Assembly: GCF_947488715.1 (NCBI RefSeq)
Contig: NZ_CANLAG010000012.1
Location: 1 to 64,000, forward strand
DNA: 64,000 nt
Direction: 5' to 3'
Source: an uncultured Tateyamaria sp.
GTDB taxonomy: Bacteria > Pseudomonadota > Alphaproteobacteria > Rhodobacterales > Rhodobacteraceae
Shown: positions 1 through 5,068 of the stretch, piece by piece
Layout of the letters: each line of letters starts with the position of its first letter
Numbering within the stretch: the stretch's first letter is position 1
Notes under the pieces: model-generated
The model's database searches: none
The model's input: the letters and a program-made list of their open reading frames with translations, nothing else
Told to the model about the DNA's origin: nothing
Translations under genes and position numbers: made by a program

Positions 1-15
1 GTCCCCGCGGGGACA
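1..15. repeat. parS-like palindrome, copy 1 (cut by window edge)
   Basis: GTCCCCGCGGGGAC followed by A; the leading T of the 16-bp unit TGTCCCCGCGGGGACA would lie before base 1. It belongs to the palindrome family clustered around parAB. A binding site for the adjacent ParB is inferred. Confidence 0.75.
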
Positions 16-77
16 ACCATAATCCCCTTTTGCTTTTTCCGCAAAACCGGCGTAAATCTGGAACTGAGCAGAATTAG

Positions 78-93
78 CGTCCCCGCAGGGACA
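78..93. repeat. parS-like palindrome, degenerate copy
   Basis: CGTCCCCGCAGGGACA, which differs from the 16-bp consensus at the first base and at one base right of the centre. It lies 10 bp before a perfect copy. Confidence 0.6.
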
Positions 94-102
94 AACACCA
101 CC

Positions 103-118
103 TGTCCCCGCGGGGACA
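103..118. repeat. parS-like palindrome, perfect copy
   Basis: TGTCCCCGCGGGGACA, a perfect 16-bp palindrome that ends 17 bp before the parA start. Its position suits partition-complex nucleation and possible autoregulation of parAB (inference). Confidence 0.8.
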
Positions 119-135
119 CATATCACAGGCAGCGC

Positions 136-1440
136 ATGTTCACACATTCCGACCTCGCCCAGCTACAGGCCCAGTCCCTCAAAATGCAGGGCTTCATCCG
201 CCAGCAGACCTACTCGCCCCAAAGCGAAAAGACCCTGCGCCGCTTCTCCAGCTGGGAGGTGGCGGAACTCATCTTCAAGGCCAACCAATCCACCTTGCGC
301 GGCCGCCTCGCCGCTGACCCCTCCCTGCCCCAAGGCACGGTCGAGGAAGACGGCCGCCAACGCTGGTACTCCCTCGACGAGATCAACGAGTTGCGTCGCC
401 GCATCAAGGTCAACCGCAAGACCCTGATGCCGTACCGCCCCGCAAACAAACGCGCCATCCGCGCCGCCATCGCCAACTTCAAAGGGGGGGCCGGCAAATC
501 CACCACCGCCCTCCATTTCGCCCACGCCGCCGCCCTCGACGGCTACCGCGTGCTCTGCGTCGACTTCGACCCGCAGGCGACACTCAGCCACTCCATGGGC
601 CTCAGCGACGTGGCCGAGGAATACACCGTCTGGGGCATCATGGCGCGCGACTTGGGCCATGAAACCGACCGCATGAACTCCGCCCTACAGGGGGCCGAAT
701 CCGGCACCGCCCTGCCCCAACGCAAACTGCCCGCCGCGATCACCGACATGGGGCTGAACGACCTGCGCGCCTCCGACTTCATTAAGCCCACGAACTGGCC
801 CACCATCGACATCGTGCCGTCCTGCGCCAACGCGGCCTTTGTCGAATTCGCCTCCGCCCAGTACCGGCACATCAACCCCGAATGGTCGTTCTTTGCCGCC
901 GTCTCGCGCTTTCTCGATCAACTCAGCCCCGACGCCTACGACCTCATCATCTTCGACTGCCCACCGGCCATCGGTTACCAATCCATGAACGCGGTCTTCG
1001 CCGCGGATGTCCTCTACATCCCCTCCGGCCCCGGCTACTGGGAATACGATTCCACCACATCCTTCATCGGCCAGCTCTCCGAGGCGCTCGAGGATCTCTC
1101 CCGCTTCAACGGTCTTGTCCCCGCGGGGACAATGGGCCTGCCCAAGTCGTTCCTCGACCTGCGCTTCTTGCTGACCCGTTACGAGCCGGGCAACGAATTG
1201 CACCGCGCCATGCACGGCGCTTTCCAAAAGGTCTTCGGCGACCGCGTCTGCGAACACCCGATCGAGATGACCCGCGCCGTCGAACAGTCGGGCCGCTTTC
1301 TCAGCAGCATCTACGAAATTGATTACCGGGATATGACCAGAGAGACCTGGCGCCGCGCCCGCGCGTCCTTCGACCGGGCCTATGACGAATTCAAAACAAA
1401 TCTGGGCCAAGCCTGGGACAATCTGGAGGATGAGGCATGA
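136..1440 (+). CDS. parA: ParA/RepA-type plasmid partition ATPase
   Basis: This 434-residue protein has the form of the long plasmid ParA family. An N-terminal winged-helix-like region (about residues 30-95) precedes the deviant Walker A motif FKGGAGKSTT at about 115-124. A conserved DFDPQ follows at about 143, and IIFDCPP marks the Walker B region near 273. Such ATPases bind DNA non-specifically and, with ParB and parS, move plasmid copies apart. Its stop overlaps the parB start (ATGA), so the two are translationally coupled. One palindrome (1116-1131) lies inside the gene and encodes LVPAGT. The family is clear; which replicon class it belongs to is not. Confidence 0.9.
   Translation: MFTHSDLAQLQAQSLKMQGFIRQQTYSPQSEKTLRRFSSWEVAELIFKANQSTLRGRLAADPSLPQGTVEEDGRQRWYSLDEINELRRRIKVNRKTLMPYRPANKRAIRAAIANFKGGAGKSTTALHFAHAAALDGYRVLCVDFDPQATLSHSMGLSDVAEEYTVWGIMARDLGHETDRMNSALQGAESGTALPQRKLPAAITDMGLNDLRASDFIKPTNWPTIDIVPSCANAAFVEFASAQYRHINPEWSFFAAVSRFLDQLSPDAYDLIIFDCPPAIGYQSMNAVFAADVLYIPSGPGYWEYDSTTSFIGQLSEALEDLSRFNGLVPAGTMGLPKSFLDLRFLLTRYEPGNELHRAMHGAFQKVFGDRVCEHPIEMTRAVEQSGRFLSSIYEIDYRDMTRETWRRARASFDRAYDEFKTNLGQAWDNLEDEA
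1116..1131. repeat. parS-like palindrome inside parA
   Basis: Perfect TGTCCCCGCGGGGACA within the parA coding frame, read as VPAGT between two otherwise ParA-like segments. Confidence 0.8.
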
Positions 1441-2489
1441 GCAAGCGCCGCGTATTCGACATCGACTTTGAACCCGGCAGCGACACGCCCGAACCTGCGG
1501 CCCCTGCCCCGGAGCCTGCGCGCCGTGGGCCCATGGCCTCCGCCATCTCGGAGAACGCCGAGGCGCTGACCGAACGCGCCGCCGCCGAGGCCGCGATTCG
1601 CGCCGAAAATGACCGCCTCGCCCATGAATACGTCTCGTTGAAACGTGACGGCGCCATCGTGGCACGCGTGCCCCTCGGGGACGTTGCCATGACCAAGCTG
1701 ACCCGCGACCGTGGCACCGGCAACGATCCTGACTTCGAAGAGCTGAAAACCTCGATCCGCGACCTGGGCCTGTCCAACCCGATCCAGGTCGAGGATACCG
1801 GCGAAGGCTATGAACTGATCCAGGGCTTTCGCCGTCTCAAGGCGCACAAGGCGCTGTTCGAGGAAACCGGCGACGACCGGTTCGCGACCATCCCCGCCGT
1901 GCTGGTGGCCAAGGGCGAGGCGCTGGAAAAACTCTATCGCCGCATGGTCGACGAAAACCTGATCCGCCGCGACATCTCCTTTGCCGAGATGGGCCAGCTG
2001 GCCGCTGCTTATGCTAGCCAGATGGGGCTGGAGGTCAGCGATGCCATCGCCACGCTCTACGCCTCTGCGGGCCGTCAAAAGCGAAGCTACATCGCCCATT
2101 TCGCGACGCTGATGTCCCTCGTGGGACACAAGCTGCAATATCCCGAGGCGATCCCCCGCTCGCTGGGTCTGCGCCTGTCCAAGGCCTTTGTCGACACGCC
2201 CAAAGTGCGGCAGCAGCTTGATGCGGTTCTGAACGCGCACCAACCCGAAACACCCGAGGCAGAGCTTGCCTTGCTCAGCCAGGTGTTGATGCCGCCCGCG
2301 GACAAGGCCGCCGCCGGTCCCTCCGCCTCGTCAAAGACGACGCTGAAACTCAGCCGCAAGGAAGGCGCGGTCAAGGTCACCGGCGCCAAGGGCAAGATCG
2401 AATTGCAGATGGATCGCGACTTTGGCGCGGTTGACCCCCGGCGGCTCGAGGCGGCGGTGCGGGCGATGCTGGACGAGTTGGGGCTGTGA
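1437..2489 (+). CDS. parB: ParB-family partition protein
   Basis: This 350-residue protein has the ParB order. A variable proline/alanine-rich N-terminus is followed by a ParB/Srx-like domain (about residues 75-160) with LGLSNPIQV and ELIQGFRRLKAHK. A helix-turn-helix region comes next, around DISFAEMGQLAAAYASQ and the stretch after it (about 180-215), and then a C-terminal dimerisation-type segment. It should bind a palindromic centromere and load CTP-dependent clamps. The 16-bp palindromes around it are the obvious target, by inference. A weak near-palindrome, TGTCCCTCGTGGGACA, lies within the gene at 2113-2128. No repC follows; the next gene is convergent bchO. Confidence 0.88.
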   Translation: MSKRRVFDIDFEPGSDTPEPAAPAPEPARRGPMASAISENAEALTERAAAEAAIRAENDRLAHEYVSLKRDGAIVARVPLGDVAMTKLTRDRGTGNDPDFEELKTSIRDLGLSNPIQVEDTGEGYELIQGFRRLKAHKALFEETGDDRFATIPAVLVAKGEALEKLYRRMVDENLIRRDISFAEMGQLAAAYASQMGLEVSDAIATLYASAGRQKRSYIAHFATLMSLVGHKLQYPEAIPRSLGLRLSKAFVDTPKVRQQLDAVLNAHQPETPEAELALLSQVLMPPADKAAAGPSASSKTTLKLSRKEGAVKVTGAKGKIELQMDRDFGAVDPRRLEAAVRAMLDELGL

Positions 2490-2490
2490 C

Positions 2491-2506
2491 TGTCCCCGCG
2501 GGGACA
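2491..2506. repeat. parS-like palindrome between parB and bchO
   Basis: Perfect TGTCCCCGCGGGGACA beginning one base after the parB stop codon. Confidence 0.8.
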
Positions 2507-2520
2507 CGCGCGCACTGATC

Positions 2521-2536
2521 TGTCCCCGCGGGGACA
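2521..2536. repeat. parS-like palindrome between parB and bchO, second copy
   Basis: Perfect TGTCCCCGCGGGGACA, 14 bp from the previous copy. The two lie between convergent parB and bchO and could also act as a weak terminator hairpin. Confidence 0.8.
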
Positions 2537-2545
2537 GATGCGTCT

Positions 2546-3418
2546 TTAGCCCGCCATTTCCTGGATAAGTTCGAGGATCAGGCCCGCCACTTCGGCGGGC
2601 TTTTCTTCGTGCGCCAGATGGCCAAGACCCGGCAGGTTCGTGACGGTCGCATCGGCCATGTCGCGTGCCGCATCCAGCGACACGGTGGGCGGCACGGTCT
2701 TGTCCCGCTCGCCCACGATAAACCGCACCGGCCCTTCATGTCCCGGCAGGGCGCGCAACAGCGGCGGCAGCTTCCATTGCGACATCATCAAAAGGGTGCC
2801 ATTCACATGGTTCCGGTCGCCTACAAGACGACGGTACAGCTCCAGCCCTTCGGCATCCAGGTGAGACCCTGTTGAGCCGATCAGAGCCTCAATGCGCGCC
2901 GGGTTGGCCGAGGCGCCGGAAAACAGGCTGGCCGTGAACGGCATCGCCGCCAGCGCCTTGGCCATCACCGGAAAGACAAGGCCCGCCAGCCCCGGAAACT
3001 CACCCAAAGCGGCGTTGATCCCGATGATCTGCGGCGTTTGTCCCCGCGGGGACAAATCGGCTTGCGCCATCCGCAGGGCAATCGCACACCCCGCTGAATG
3101 ACCAACGATTGTGGTGGGGCTCCAGCCCTCCTGCCCGCACAGCGCCGCGATGTCCGTGGCCATCGGGTCCAGCCCGCAACGATGCCGCGCGCCCAGCTGT
3201 GTGAACCCCTGTCCCGGCAGGTCCAGCGCGACCACGTGATGCGTGGCCGCGAGCAGTGGGATCATGTGCCGGAACGAATGCGTCGATCCGCCTGCGCCGT
3301 GCAGTAGCAGGATCGTGTCGCCCGTCCCGGTTTCTTGGATATGCCACCGATGCACGGGCCCCTGTCCCCGCCGGGACAGCGCCGCGTTTGGCCAAGTGTC
3401 GATGTGATCCCACTGCAT
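2546..3418 (-). CDS. bchO: Magnesium chelatase accessory protein BchO (alpha/beta hydrolase fold)
   Basis: This 290-residue alpha/beta hydrolase has the oxyanion segment LLLHGAGGSTHSF, the nucleophile elbow VGHSAGCA and a late GLGHLAHEEKP histidine motif. BchO is the usual third partner after bchI and bchD; its exact biochemical role is not settled. The ATG at 3418 lies three bases after the bchD stop, so the two are co-transcribed. Two palindromes fall inside the gene: a perfect copy read as SPRGQ near residue 125, and a one-mismatch copy near the N-terminus read as SRRGQ. No break in the frame is seen. Confidence 0.88.
   Translation of the reverse strand: MQWDHIDTWPNAALSRRGQGPVHRWHIQETGTGDTILLLHGAGGSTHSFRHMIPLLAATHHVVALDLPGQGFTQLGARHRCGLDPMATDIAALCGQEGWSPTTIVGHSAGCAIALRMAQADLSPRGQTPQIIGINAALGEFPGLAGLVFPVMAKALAAMPFTASLFSGASANPARIEALIGSTGSHLDAEGLELYRRLVGDRNHVNGTLLMMSQWKLPPLLRALPGHEGPVRFIVGERDKTVPPTVSLDAARDMADATVTNLPGLGHLAHEEKPAEVAGLILELIQEMAG
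3039..3054. repeat. parS-like palindrome inside bchO
   Basis: Perfect TGTCCCCGCGGGGACA; on the bchO strand it reads as LSPRGQ. Confidence 0.8.
3363..3378. repeat. parS-like palindrome inside bchO, degenerate copy
   Basis: TGTCCCCGCCGGGACA, one mismatch from the perfect palindrome, near the N-terminus of bchO. Confidence 0.65.
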
Positions 3419-3421
3419 CGC

Positions 3422-5068
3422 TCAGCCGTCCAAGGCGGCGGTGACGGCCCCGGTCAGCTTGTGCGCATCGGCGCGGGGCAGGGCGATGTAGGGTGCGTCG
3501 AGTGTGGTTGCGAGGGCTTGCAGCGTGGGCTGTGGTCGGTTGGACATGTCGATCACCAGCGCGGCGATCCCCTGTCCCCGCAGGCCCGCTGCCATCAGCG
3601 TCGCATCTGCGCCTGCCTGTGCACGGTTGGCCGTCCCGTCGAGCGCAATGTTTGCGCGTCCATCCGTGATGAGGACAACCGTGGGGGTCAGGCCTTTGGA
3701 TCGGTTTTGTAGCGCGGTCAGCATCGCGGTCTGGAGACCTGTCGCGAGTGGCGTTCCCCCGCCGCCGGGCAGGGCGGAGAGACGGCGTTTGGTCTGGACC
3801 AAAGACCGCGTCGGAGGCAGCAGCGTTTCCGCTTCGGTGCCGCGGAAGGAGATCAGCGTGACGTGGTCGCGGCTCGCATAGGCTTCGGCCAGCAGGAGTT
3901 CGATGGCGCCCTTCGCCTCGCCCAGCCGGGACACGGCGGCCGAGCCGGAGGCGTCCACGCAGAACACGAGCAGACGGTCGGAGTGTTCGGCGTAGCGCTT
4001 GAGGCGGATGTCTGCGGGGGTGATCAGCAATCCGGCGCGGTCCGGTTGCTGTTGACGCCGGAGCGGTTGCCAGGGGGCTGCGGCGCGCAATGTGGCGATG
4101 AGGTCGATGCGGGAGGTGCCGTCGAGCCGACCGGGTCGCGAGGGGAAGGGGCGGCCGCGGCGGTTGGAGGTGCGCTTTTGCCCCGCGCCGGAGCCTTGGG
4201 ATGTGCGGGTTGTCCCCGCGGGGACAAGGCCATCGAGCAGGTTCTTGGGAAGCAGGGATTTCACCGCGTCTATGAGCATGTCGCCGTCGGGGAGGGCGTC
4301 TTTTTCGTCGCTGTCCCCGCGGGGACAGTCGTCCTGTTCCGCGGGTGGCGGGGGTGGCGGATCGTCTGGGGTGTCGTCCTCGGGGATCACCGTCGCGCGT
4401 TGGGGGTAGACGAGGGAGGCGGCGACCTCGAGGTCGGTGTCGGTGAGGTGCGTGCGGTCCAGTAACACTGCGTGGGCGCGGGCGGTGCGCAGGGCAAGCG
4501 TCGGCGCGCGCAGGGATGTGATGCCGAAACGGGCGGCGAGGAGGGTCAGTTGCACAACGGCGTCGGCGGTGGAGACCTCTGTCCCCGCGGGGACAGACGG
4601 GGGTGTCCCCGCGGGGACAGGGGGTTTGCGGCCCTCGGGTGCGAGGTGGAATGCACAGCGGTCGGCGAGGGCGTCGGGGGTGCGTTCGTCGGGTTCGATG
4701 CCCTCGTCGATCAGCAAAAACCCCTGTGTTAGAGACTGATCTGCGAGCTGAGAGAGCTTGGCCGCGAGGGCAGGGGGGCAGCGTTCGGCCATGGGAACCT
4801 GGGCGATACAGGGCCTTTGAAAAAATGATTTATTTTCAATGACTTGCGAGGAGGCAAGCGTGGCGGTCAGGTCGATGCCGCCGAAAAGCTGTTCGTCGGA
4901 GATGGAGATGGGCAGTTTGCGGACGGGCAGGGCGGGGCGGAAGGTGGCGAGCAGGGCGTCGCGGTCGGGGCTGGCGCGCATGCGGATGACCGCGCCGCCG
5001 AGCCCGGCGGGGTCCACGGCCAGCAGGCGCAGGGCCAGAGCGGCGTTATGCCAGCTTTCGGCGGTCAT
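3422..5068 (-). CDS. bchD: Magnesium chelatase subunit D
   Basis: This 548-residue AAA-like plus von Willebrand A (integrin I) subunit couples BchI ATP hydrolysis to BchH during Mg2+ insertion into protoporphyrin IX. The N-terminal AAA-like half lacks a Walker A. The middle is an acidic, proline-rich linker (EDDTPDDPPPPPP), and the C-terminal VWA domain shows the MIDAS motif DASGS in FCVDASGS. The start is placed at ATG 5068 (MTAESWHN); the open frame continues upstream without BchD-like sequence. Four perfect palindromes lie in the gene and appear as VPAGT twice, CPRGD and LVPAGT, all in low-complexity or linker parts. Confidence 0.92.
   Translation of the reverse strand: MTAESWHNAALALRLLAVDPAGLGGAVIRMRASPDRDALLATFRPALPVRKLPISISDEQLFGGIDLTATLASSQVIENKSFFQRPCIAQVPMAERCPPALAAKLSQLADQSLTQGFLLIDEGIEPDERTPDALADRCAFHLAPEGRKPPVPAGTPPSVPAGTEVSTADAVVQLTLLAARFGITSLRAPTLALRTARAHAVLLDRTHLTDTDLEVAASLVYPQRATVIPEDDTPDDPPPPPPAEQDDCPRGDSDEKDALPDGDMLIDAVKSLLPKNLLDGLVPAGTTRTSQGSGAGQKRTSNRRGRPFPSRPGRLDGTSRIDLIATLRAAAPWQPLRRQQQPDRAGLLITPADIRLKRYAEHSDRLLVFCVDASGSAAVSRLGEAKGAIELLLAEAYASRDHVTLISFRGTEAETLLPPTRSLVQTKRRLSALPGGGGTPLATGLQTAMLTALQNRSKGLTPTVVLITDGRANIALDGTANRAQAGADATLMAAGLRGQGIAALVIDMSNRPQPTLQALATTLDAPYIALPRADAHKLTGAVTAALDG
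4211..4226. repeat. parS-like palindrome inside bchD
   Basis: Perfect TGTCCCCGCGGGGACA, read as LVPAGT between the acidic linker and the VWA domain. Confidence 0.8.
4312..4327. repeat. parS-like palindrome inside bchD, acidic linker
   Basis: Perfect TGTCCCCGCGGGGACA, read as CPRGD within the acidic linker. Confidence 0.8.
4580..4595. repeat. parS-like palindrome inside bchD, first of a pair
   Basis: Perfect TGTCCCCGCGGGGACA, only 8 bp from the next copy. The pair reads as VPAGTPPSVPAGT on the bchD strand. Confidence 0.8.
4604..4619. repeat. parS-like palindrome inside bchD, second of a pair
   Basis: Perfect TGTCCCCGCGGGGACA. This is the last copy seen; none was noticed from here to the end of the window. 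Confidence 0.8.

What the first reader, a model, noticed from the sequence alone, without database searches (positions are those of the whole stretch)
1..4619. A 16-bp palindrome family clusters at parAB and extends into photosynthesis genes
TGTCCCCGCGGGGACA occurs ten times without mismatch (the first cut by the window edge), plus two near-perfect copies, in the first 4.6 kb; by eye none is found in the other 59 kb. The length and TGT...ACA ends match the form of the chromosomal parS site (TGTTTCACGTGAAACA). Adjacent parB makes it the likely centromere. The unusual part is that six perfect copies sit inside coding sequences of parA, bchO and bchD.
Basis: partly seen in the sequence, partly recalled or inferred. 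Interest (0 to 1): 0.78.

Follow-up and report, generated by a model that had tools for sequence, protein, structure and literature searches.

The report
Plasmid centromere sites scattered across chromosome
A 16-letter DNA palindrome that marks the likely centromere of a photosynthesis plasmid in marine Tateyamaria bacteria also occurs dozens of times around the chromosome, in step with the plasmid's DNA-binding protein ParB, which suggests that a plasmid partition protein has gained a chromosome-wide role.

Summary
In detail: nine full perfect copies, one cut by the window edge and two near copies of TGTCCCCGCGGGGACA lie in window 1-4619. Copies in parA, bchO and bchD recur, in part, at the same places in other photosynthesis plasmids, and Paracoccus and Limimaricola relatives carry altered palindromes. 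This supports a centromere (parS) of the plasmid's ParB; the spread into bch genes is conserved, not odd.

The surprise lies outside the window. The same genome holds 71 exact copies against 0 for the reversed control. Among 20 Tateyamaria genomes, exactly the 14 with this ParB hold the palindrome, and 12 of these carry 22-95 copies. T. omphalii DOK1-4 has 45 on its chromosome and 10 on the plasmid; 15 of the 45 are intact at the matching place in the window's genome, in alignments 72-83% identical. Two other genera with 79 and 62 copies carry a ParB of this family without its ParA and without its N-terminal segment. Another ParB's palindrome has 0-3 copies per genome. Best reading: a plasmid ParB recruited to a chromosome-wide, Noc-like site network. 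Binding and function are untested.

The parts
1..15 (.). parS-like palindrome cut by the contig edge (15 of 16 bases)
   Evidence: sequence; the T. omphalii plasmid has a full copy at the matching place (L017:6000)
78..93 (.). near copy, 2 mismatches
   Evidence: L017 also has a 2-mismatch copy there
103..118 (.). perfect palindrome upstream of parA
136..1440 (+). parA (434 aa partition ATPase)
1116..1131 (.). perfect palindrome inside parA, codons VPAGT
   Evidence: intact in 10 of 17 plasmid parA genes, 1 mismatch in 2, CTTCCCC-type variant in 4, lost in 1
1437..2489 (+). parB (350 aa), proposed binder of the palindrome
2491..2506 (.). perfect palindrome after parB
2521..2536 (.). perfect palindrome between parB and bchO
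2546..3418 (-). bchO
   Evidence: NCBIfam TIGR03056
3039..3054 (.). perfect palindrome inside bchO
3363..3378 (.). near copy (1 mismatch) inside bchO
   Evidence: the same variant in L017
3422..5077 (-). bchD (magnesium chelatase subunit D); start not checked
   Evidence: NCBIfam NF009943
4211..4226 (.). perfect palindrome inside bchD
4312..4327 (.). perfect palindrome inside bchD; of the plasmids aligned there shared only with T. omphalii
4580..4595 (.). perfect palindrome inside bchD
4604..4619 (.). perfect palindrome inside bchD

Best explanation
TGTCCCCGCGGGGACA is the parS site of the ParB encoded at 1437-2489. On the photosynthesis plasmid the cluster at parAB-bchO-bchD is the centromere. 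In 12 of the 14 Tateyamaria genomes that hold this ParB, it also has landing sites around the chromosome: 45 counted in T. omphalii DOK1-4, and roughly 10-85 elsewhere if about ten copies per genome are on the plasmid. Selection keeps them, so ParB can load all over the nucleoid, much as Noc loads at its NBS sites in Bacillus. In two other genera a ParB of the same family lacks the partner ParA and the N-terminal segment conserved in the others, and the genomes hold 79 and 62 sites, which looks like full conversion into a genome-wide DNA-binding protein. Shown: the sites, their conservation, their co-occurrence with this ParB, and the missing ParA in the two orphan cases. Inferred: that ParB binds the sites, and that the network organises the nucleoid, couples it to division, or ties the chromid-like plasmid to the chromosome. 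I hold binding at about 0.8, and no single one of these roles above about 0.4.
For: Genome count 71 against a reversed control of 0. Copies in parA, bchO and bchD at matching places in other plasmids with diverged flanks. In 17 plasmid parA genes the internal site is intact in 10 while synonymous third positions are only 54-72% identical to the window's; the 4 Paracoccus genes carry CTTCCCC-type versions and Limimaricola carries GTTCCCCGCGGGGAAC elsewhere in its locus, as expected if site and ParB change together. Palindrome and ParB orthologue (71-100% identity) occur in exactly the same 14 of 20 Tateyamaria genomes, scatter in 12 of those 14 and in 0 of the other 6. G255 and G263 have a single ParB match at E <= 1e-10 yet 66 and 95 sites. 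15 of 45 T. omphalii chromosomal sites are intact at the matching place in the window's genome; chance at 78% identity would keep about 2%. In 1.2 Mb of chromosome sampled from two ParB-bearing species there are 16 exact copies, 2 with one mismatch, 2 with two, 6 with three and no palindromic variant, so the letters and not just the symmetry are kept. Another ParB paralogue's palindrome has 0-3 copies in the 8 genomes searched. Orphan ParBs in G063 and G247: in G063 parB lies beside bchO, bchD and bchI in the same convergent order as in the window; neither has a cognate parA, and both lack the N-terminal KRR.FDI.F segment.
Against: No binding data. T. pelophila (G251) and G260 have this ParB and ParA but only 2 exact copies, both near parB, so ParB does not by itself bring the sites. 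Of 22 palindrome-bearing genomes in the family survey 15 have only 1-6 copies. Co-occurrence within the genus is partly shared ancestry: the tree gives only 3 independent pairs on well supported branches, too few for significance. Only about a third of T. omphalii sites were seen intact in G000, so sites turn over. T. omphalii sites are spread evenly, also near the terminus, unlike Noc sites. No clear N-terminal amphipathic helix was seen. Extra parS sites on a chromosome would be expected to compete with the plasmid for ParB.
Confidence: 0.72

Rival explanations
1. Chromid tether: ParB on plasmid parS and on chromosomal sites bridges the two, so that the photosynthesis replicon rides with the nucleoid. 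The sites serve the plasmid, not division.
For: In T. omphalii DOK1-4 all 55 copies are on the chromosome (45, listed) and the photosynthesis plasmid (5 listed, 10 in the plasmid record), none on other replicons. The Tateyamaria photosynthesis replicons were called chromid-like in PMC6739100 (passages read). Even spread round the chromosome suits a tether.
Against: G063 and G247 hold 79 and 62 sites with a ParB that has no cognate ParA; in G063 the gene sits in a bch cluster with an efflux pump, a PhzF-like gene and an ABC transporter gene nearby.
Confidence: 0.28
2. The plasmid cluster is parS, but the chromosomal copies act through something else: an unrelated DNA-binding protein, or RNA hairpins near gene ends (REP-like).
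For: Chromosomal sites are enriched between genes: 32 of 58 in G000 against an 11% baseline and 21 of 45 in G249 against 10%, several within a few bases of a stop codon. The 16-mer could form a hairpin in RNA (inferred, not folded).
Against: 26 of 58 and 24 of 45 lie inside genes; no palindromic variants, as a hairpin would allow, in the 1.2 Mb searched; presence follows the ParB across the genus and in 11 of 11 family genomes checked.
Confidence: 0.13
3. The sites are operators of a transcription regulator, with ParB acting like KorB or VirB.
For: ParB relatives KorB and VirB control genes from DNA sites (PMC11790492 and PMC10770331, starts of abstracts in listing only).
Against: Divergent, promoter-rich gaps hold 1 of 30 classed intergenic sites in G000 (baseline 21%, p 0.007); in G249 it is 4 of 21 against 24%, no depletion but no enrichment either. 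About half the sites are inside genes.
Confidence: 0.12
4. A small mobile palindrome that inserts itself, with no binder.
For: Dozens of exact copies in one genome. Copies in genes mostly read VPAGT (20 of 26 in G000, 16 of 24 in G249). A few copies share short flanks: two of 58 sites in G000 share 12 adjacent bases and a third has nearly the same.
Against: Apart from these no two of 58 sites in G000 or 45 in G249 share 10 adjacent flank bases. At places that lack the site the 16 bases mostly align without a gap, with 6-8 mismatches, rather than as an absent block (8 of 10 alignments in G261, 3 of 4 site-less ones in G262), so gain or loss by substitution is usual. Sites are shared between species.
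Confidence: 0.04

Closest known systems
Noc and its NBS sites (Bacillus subtilis; PMC4331003 and PMC7383237, passages read)
   Same: ParB-family protein with dozens of short palindromic sites around one chromosome (about 70 in B. subtilis); the two orphan members here lack parA and the conserved N-terminal segment
   Different: Here the Tateyamaria ParB keeps its ParA and its plasmid; T. omphalii sites are not absent from the terminus half; no clear N-terminal amphipathic helix seen; the lineage is Rhodobacterales and the source gene is a plasmid parB beside bch genes
ParABS of DnaA-like I plasmids of Rhodobacterales (PMC6052148, passages read)
   Same: Plasmid module inside the photosynthesis gene cluster; a divergent DnaA N-terminal domain gene upstream of parA in relatives
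   Different: No chromosomal sites are described in the passages I read; 15 of 22 palindrome-bearing family genomes have only 1-6 copies. The replication gene of the window's own plasmid is beyond the contig edge and was not seen
Compatibility-specific palindromes of RepABC plasmids (PMC5613091, passages read)
   Same: Short perfect palindromes as specific sites for the plasmid's ParB-type protein, with a base change separating groups
   Different: Those are 14 nt, mostly two adjacent copies by the operon; scatter is not described in the passages read
KorB of RK2 and VirB (PMC11790492, PMC10770331, listing only)
   Same: ParB relatives with tasks beyond partition
   Different: They regulate genes; these sites are not enriched in promoter-rich gaps

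Membership tests
Plasmid ParABS partition system | parA and parB adjacent | tested here: met
Plasmid ParABS partition system | cluster of inverted repeats at the operon, conserved and changing with ParB | tested here: met
Plasmid ParABS partition system | ParB binds the repeats and stabilises the plasmid | not testable with these tools
   needs binding and stability assays
Noc / NBS nucleoid occlusion | ParB-type fold | tested here: met
   weak sequence matches to Spo0J, ParB and Noc structures and Foldseek matches to ParB and Noc (model pLDDT 73, pTM 0.38; full-length TM scores 0.19-0.24 by query length, so whole-chain superposition is poor)
Noc / NBS nucleoid occlusion | dozens of palindromic sites spread over the chromosome | tested here: met
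Noc / NBS nucleoid occlusion | sites absent from the terminus region | tested here: not met
   T. omphalii DOK1-4, 45 sites: no departure from even spread (KS p 0.24), no trend with distance from the origin; origin and terminus placed only by 20 GC-skew samples
Noc / NBS nucleoid occlusion | N-terminal amphipathic membrane helix | tested here: inconclusive
   no clear helix in window, G249, G063 or G247 proteins by a simple hydrophobic-moment scan without a Noc control; start sites of the orphans are guessed
Noc / NBS nucleoid occlusion | no partner ParA | tested here: not met
   parA adjacent to parB in the window and in all 13 other ParB-bearing Tateyamaria genomes (in G254 only its end is on the contig); the orphans in G063 and G247 do lack it
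REP-like / hairpin repeats | symmetry kept while letters vary between copies | tested here: not met
   no palindromic variants among matches with up to 3 mismatches in 1.2 Mb of G262 and G249

The most novel reading that the evidence does not exclude
A plasmid's centromere code has been taken up by the host chromosome: selection keeps dozens of exact parS copies on the Tateyamaria chromosome for the plasmid's own ParB, and in Actibacterium and one more genus the plasmid's ParA is gone and ParB is left as a genome-wide DNA organiser. That would be an independent evolution of a Noc-like system, with a ParA-bearing intermediate still alive.
Probability: 0.4. Interest if true: 0.88.

Novelty: new variant of a known kind. 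Interest (0 to 1): 0.74.

Why it matters
Noc is described as having arisen from a canonical parB by duplication and new function (PMC12704722, passage read). Here a set of species seems to show possible steps side by side: local cluster only; cluster plus chromosomal network with ParA still present; network with ParA lost. It offers a clean test of whether a plasmid partition protein can act on the host chromosome, and of how a chromid is tied to it. The passages that I read on Rhodobacter sphaeroides (PMC6315104) name nucleoid occlusion systems for E. coli and B. subtilis and MipZ for Caulobacter; a Noc-like network in Rhodobacterales would be new to me.

Tried and rejected
A first rpoB tree was wrong because half of the loci were on the other strand; it was redone with all rows oriented and only the second is used. 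I looked for regular spacing or origin/terminus bias of sites in T. omphalii and found none. I considered that gene-internal copies are insertions; most places without the site align without gaps, so this was dropped as the main route. I first took the ParB match at G249:C1:3686626 for the chromosome's own ParB; its 20-kb surroundings show no canonical parS with up to 2 mismatches on the strand read (part of the stretch is masked), so the chromosome's own parABS was not located. I expected decayed relics in G261, which lacks this ParB (its best match is a 35% paralogue) but sits inside the scatter clade on rpoB; it has only 3 matches with up to 2 mismatches (reversed control 0), and 0 of 10 alignments (8 distinct places) in 800 kb are intact. 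This fits loss, but also a wrong placing of G261 by one gene. Viral contigs gave 3 hits, not followed. A text search for the 14-base core found no paper; the listings showed nothing on chromosomal copies; the 2011 paper on DnaA-like plasmids (Mol Biol Evol 28:1229, seen only as a reference) was not read.

Limits of the counts. Of 71 copies in G000, 9 are in the window, 69 were located and 58 outside the window were read; 2 located ones were not read and 2 were not located. The G249 listing shows 50 of 55 sites; all 45 on C1 were read. Gene contexts come from a home-made gene caller. The 17 plasmid parA genes are 17 of 428 matching records, picked from the first 40 rows. ParB searches in the family covered 11 of the 22 palindrome-bearing genomes. 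In the control one of the three copies in G000 lies on another contig (C6) than the ParB that goes with it (C15).
Full report
Observation. The palindrome TGTCCCCGCGGGGACA has nine full perfect copies at 103, 1116, 2491, 2521, 3039, 4211, 4312, 4580 and 4604, a copy cut by the window edge at 1-15, and near copies at 78 and 3363. Shuffles give about one match with up to three mismatches per window; 0 of 100 reach twelve. Six perfect copies are in genes: one in parA, one in bchO, four in bchD. The finding is confirmed as described.

What the cluster is. The genes beside it are a partition ATPase and a ParB protein. The ParB matches ParB, Spo0J and Noc structures weakly by sequence and by predicted fold (mean pLDDT 73, pTM 0.38, poor whole-chain superposition). 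The closest plasmids are photosynthesis plasmids of Tateyamaria, Thalassococcus and Roseobacter with the same order parA-parB-bchO-bchD-bchI. The parA site is intact in all four of these; the bchO site is intact in three and has one mismatch in R. litoralis; the bchD sites are shared in part, the one at 4312 only with T. omphalii. Flanks are about 65-87% identical to the window's. Related plasmids have a DnaA N-terminal domain gene upstream of parA, which fits the DnaA-like I replication type that PMC6052148 (passages read) reports inside the photosynthesis gene cluster of Tateyamaria sp. ANG-S1 and others. In 17 plasmid parA genes taken from the similarity search without regard to the palindrome, the internal site is intact in 10, has one mismatch in 2, has a CTTCCCC-type form in 4 (all Paracoccus) and is lost in 1 (Limimaricola, which has GTTCCCCGCGGGGAAC elsewhere in the locus); synonymous third positions in the same genes are 54-72% identical. 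This is the pattern of a ParB binding site. The presence in bch genes is part of a conserved arrangement.

The same palindrome elsewhere in the genome. The window's genome has 71 exact copies and 0 of the reversed control. Nine are in the window. I read 58 of the other 62. They are scattered over many contigs, roughly one per 65 kb. By a simple gene caller 32 of 58 are between genes against a baseline of 11% (p 4e-16), and 21 of 45 in T. omphalii against 10% (p 7e-10). In G000 divergent gaps are poor in sites (1 of 30, baseline 21%); in G249 they are not (4 of 21, baseline 24%). Copies inside genes favour one reading frame, VPAGT: 20 of 26 and 16 of 24. The flanking base is most often C on the left and G on the right.

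Who has it. In 248 genomes spread over the family, 22 have the palindrome; 15 of these have 1-6 copies, while G000 has 71, G063 79 and G247 62. I searched 11 of the 22 for ParB: each has a ParB relative whose own locus holds the palindrome. Within the genus, 20 genomes were searched: 14 have the palindrome and the same 14 have the ParB orthologue (71-100% identity); 12 of the 14 have 22-95 copies, G251 (T. pelophila) and G260 have only 2; the 6 genomes without the orthologue have none. Of these six, G259 and G261 have 32-35% paralogues only. parA is adjacent in all 13 relatives checked, though only its end is on the contig in G254. G255 and G263 have one ParB match at E <= 1e-10, so in them the plasmid ParB is the only candidate of this kind at that cut-off. 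Fisher's test on these counts gives p 3e-5 and 7e-4, but it ignores ancestry; on the rpoB tree only 3 independent pairs exist, too few to reach significance.

Selection on chromosomal sites. G249 is T. omphalii DOK1-4 by its plasmid coordinates. It has 45 chromosomal copies and 10 on the photosynthesis plasmid. 15 of the 45 are intact at the matching place in G000, in alignments 72-83% identical, and five more lie in matching regions without a through alignment. At 78% identity chance would keep 2%. I could not count places where G000 has the region but not the site. In a further sample of 800 kb of G262, 3 of 7 alignments are intact. In 1.2 Mb of G262 and G249 there are 16 exact copies, 2 with one mismatch, 2 with two, 6 with three and no palindromic variant. 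Copies are nearly all or nothing, and exact letters matter.

A possible natural experiment. G261 lacks this ParB and has no copy. On rpoB it lies inside the clade with scatter (100/100 for the ten-genome fork; 97/98 for the twelve-genome fork). It has 3 matches with up to two mismatches in the whole genome, and 0 of 10 alignments (8 distinct places) in 800 kb are intact, with 7-8 mismatches or gaps. At one place (L044) its bases read VPMGT in the gene's frame where site-bearing relatives read VPAGT, so the peptide is nearly kept while the DNA palindrome is absent. This fits loss of the sites after loss of ParB, but it rests on one gene for the tree, and a genome that never had the sites would look the same.

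Control with another ParB. G000 and others carry further ParB paralogues with other palindromes at their own loci, such as GTTTCGCGCGCGAAAC. That palindrome has 2-3 copies in 6 of 8 genomes and none in 2; one of the three in G000 is on another contig than its ParB.

Two orphans. Its ParB (44% identity) lies beside bchO in the same convergent order as in the window, with bchD and bchI next, an efflux pump, a PhzF-like gene and an ABC transporter gene nearby, and no parA. G247 has 62 copies; its ParB (43%) stands divergently beside a RepABC operon and has no cognate parA. Both lack the N-terminal segment KRR.FDI.F...RRGPM that the 19 other aligned ParBs share, and both have long branches (which warns that their joining may be false). 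The Noc literature that I read in passages notes orphan ParBs that lack parA and the ParA-binding motif, Noc among them (PMC12704722, PMC4331003).

Mechanism. Most likely ParB nucleates on the 16-mer, loads as a CTP clamp and slides (known for ParB and Noc; inferred here), on the plasmid for partition and on the chromosome for a second task. That the sites are ParB sites is well supported (about 0.8). The second task is open: nucleoid organisation or division coupling as in Noc (about 0.4), a tether between chromid and chromosome (about 0.28), gene regulation (about 0.12). Against a strict Noc reading, sites are not missing from the terminus half of the T. omphalii chromosome (KS p 0.24) and no clear membrane helix was seen (no positive control). 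Against any reading by ParB alone, two Tateyamaria species and many other genomes have the ParB without scatter.

Novelty. Partition palindromes by plasmid ParB genes are known (PMC5613091, passages read). A plasmid ParB with dozens of conserved sites on the host chromosome is not in the passages I read, and text searches did not show it in the held library; subscription papers are mostly outside it.

On re-reading the calls I corrected the flank range (72-83%), the peptide at L044 (VPMGT), the spread of copy numbers outside the plasmid, the count of family genomes with few copies, the status of the membrane-helix test (inconclusive) and the statement on shared flanks.

Noticed in passing
L437 (Alloyangia pacifica plasmid plas2), L436, L438 (Leisingera): Local clusters reach 16, 9 and 10 perfect copies in 3.6-5.2 kb; copy number at the centromere varies widely between plasmids.
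   Followed up: no
L091 and G260:C9:42107-46592: T. pelophila and G260 have the ParB but only 2 perfect copies and degenerate plasmid sites such as CGTCCCCTCGGGGACA; plasmid sites are worn in the two species where chromosomal scatter is absent.
   Followed up: partly
G264 (22 copies), G001 (10), G081 (14): Intermediate counts; in G001 and G081 some copies are on other contigs than the ParB; possible early stages of spread.
   Followed up: no
L004, L011, L048 at the site: TTTAACATAAT directly precedes the palindrome at three of 58 sites in G000, the only shared flank of that length.
   Followed up: partly
L194, L192: Another ParB relative has the palindrome GGTAACCCATGGGTTACC at its locus, so several paralogues seem to have their own palindrome.
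   Followed up: partly
L094:350-491: A Dysgonamonadaceae MAG contig holds three exact copies within 142 bases, far outside Rhodobacterales.
   Followed up: no
L177, L178, L179: Three viral contigs hold one copy each.
   Followed up: no
window 1: The contig starts inside a palindrome copy, so the other part of the plasmid, with the replication gene, must be on another contig; two of the 71 copies were not located.
   Followed up: no
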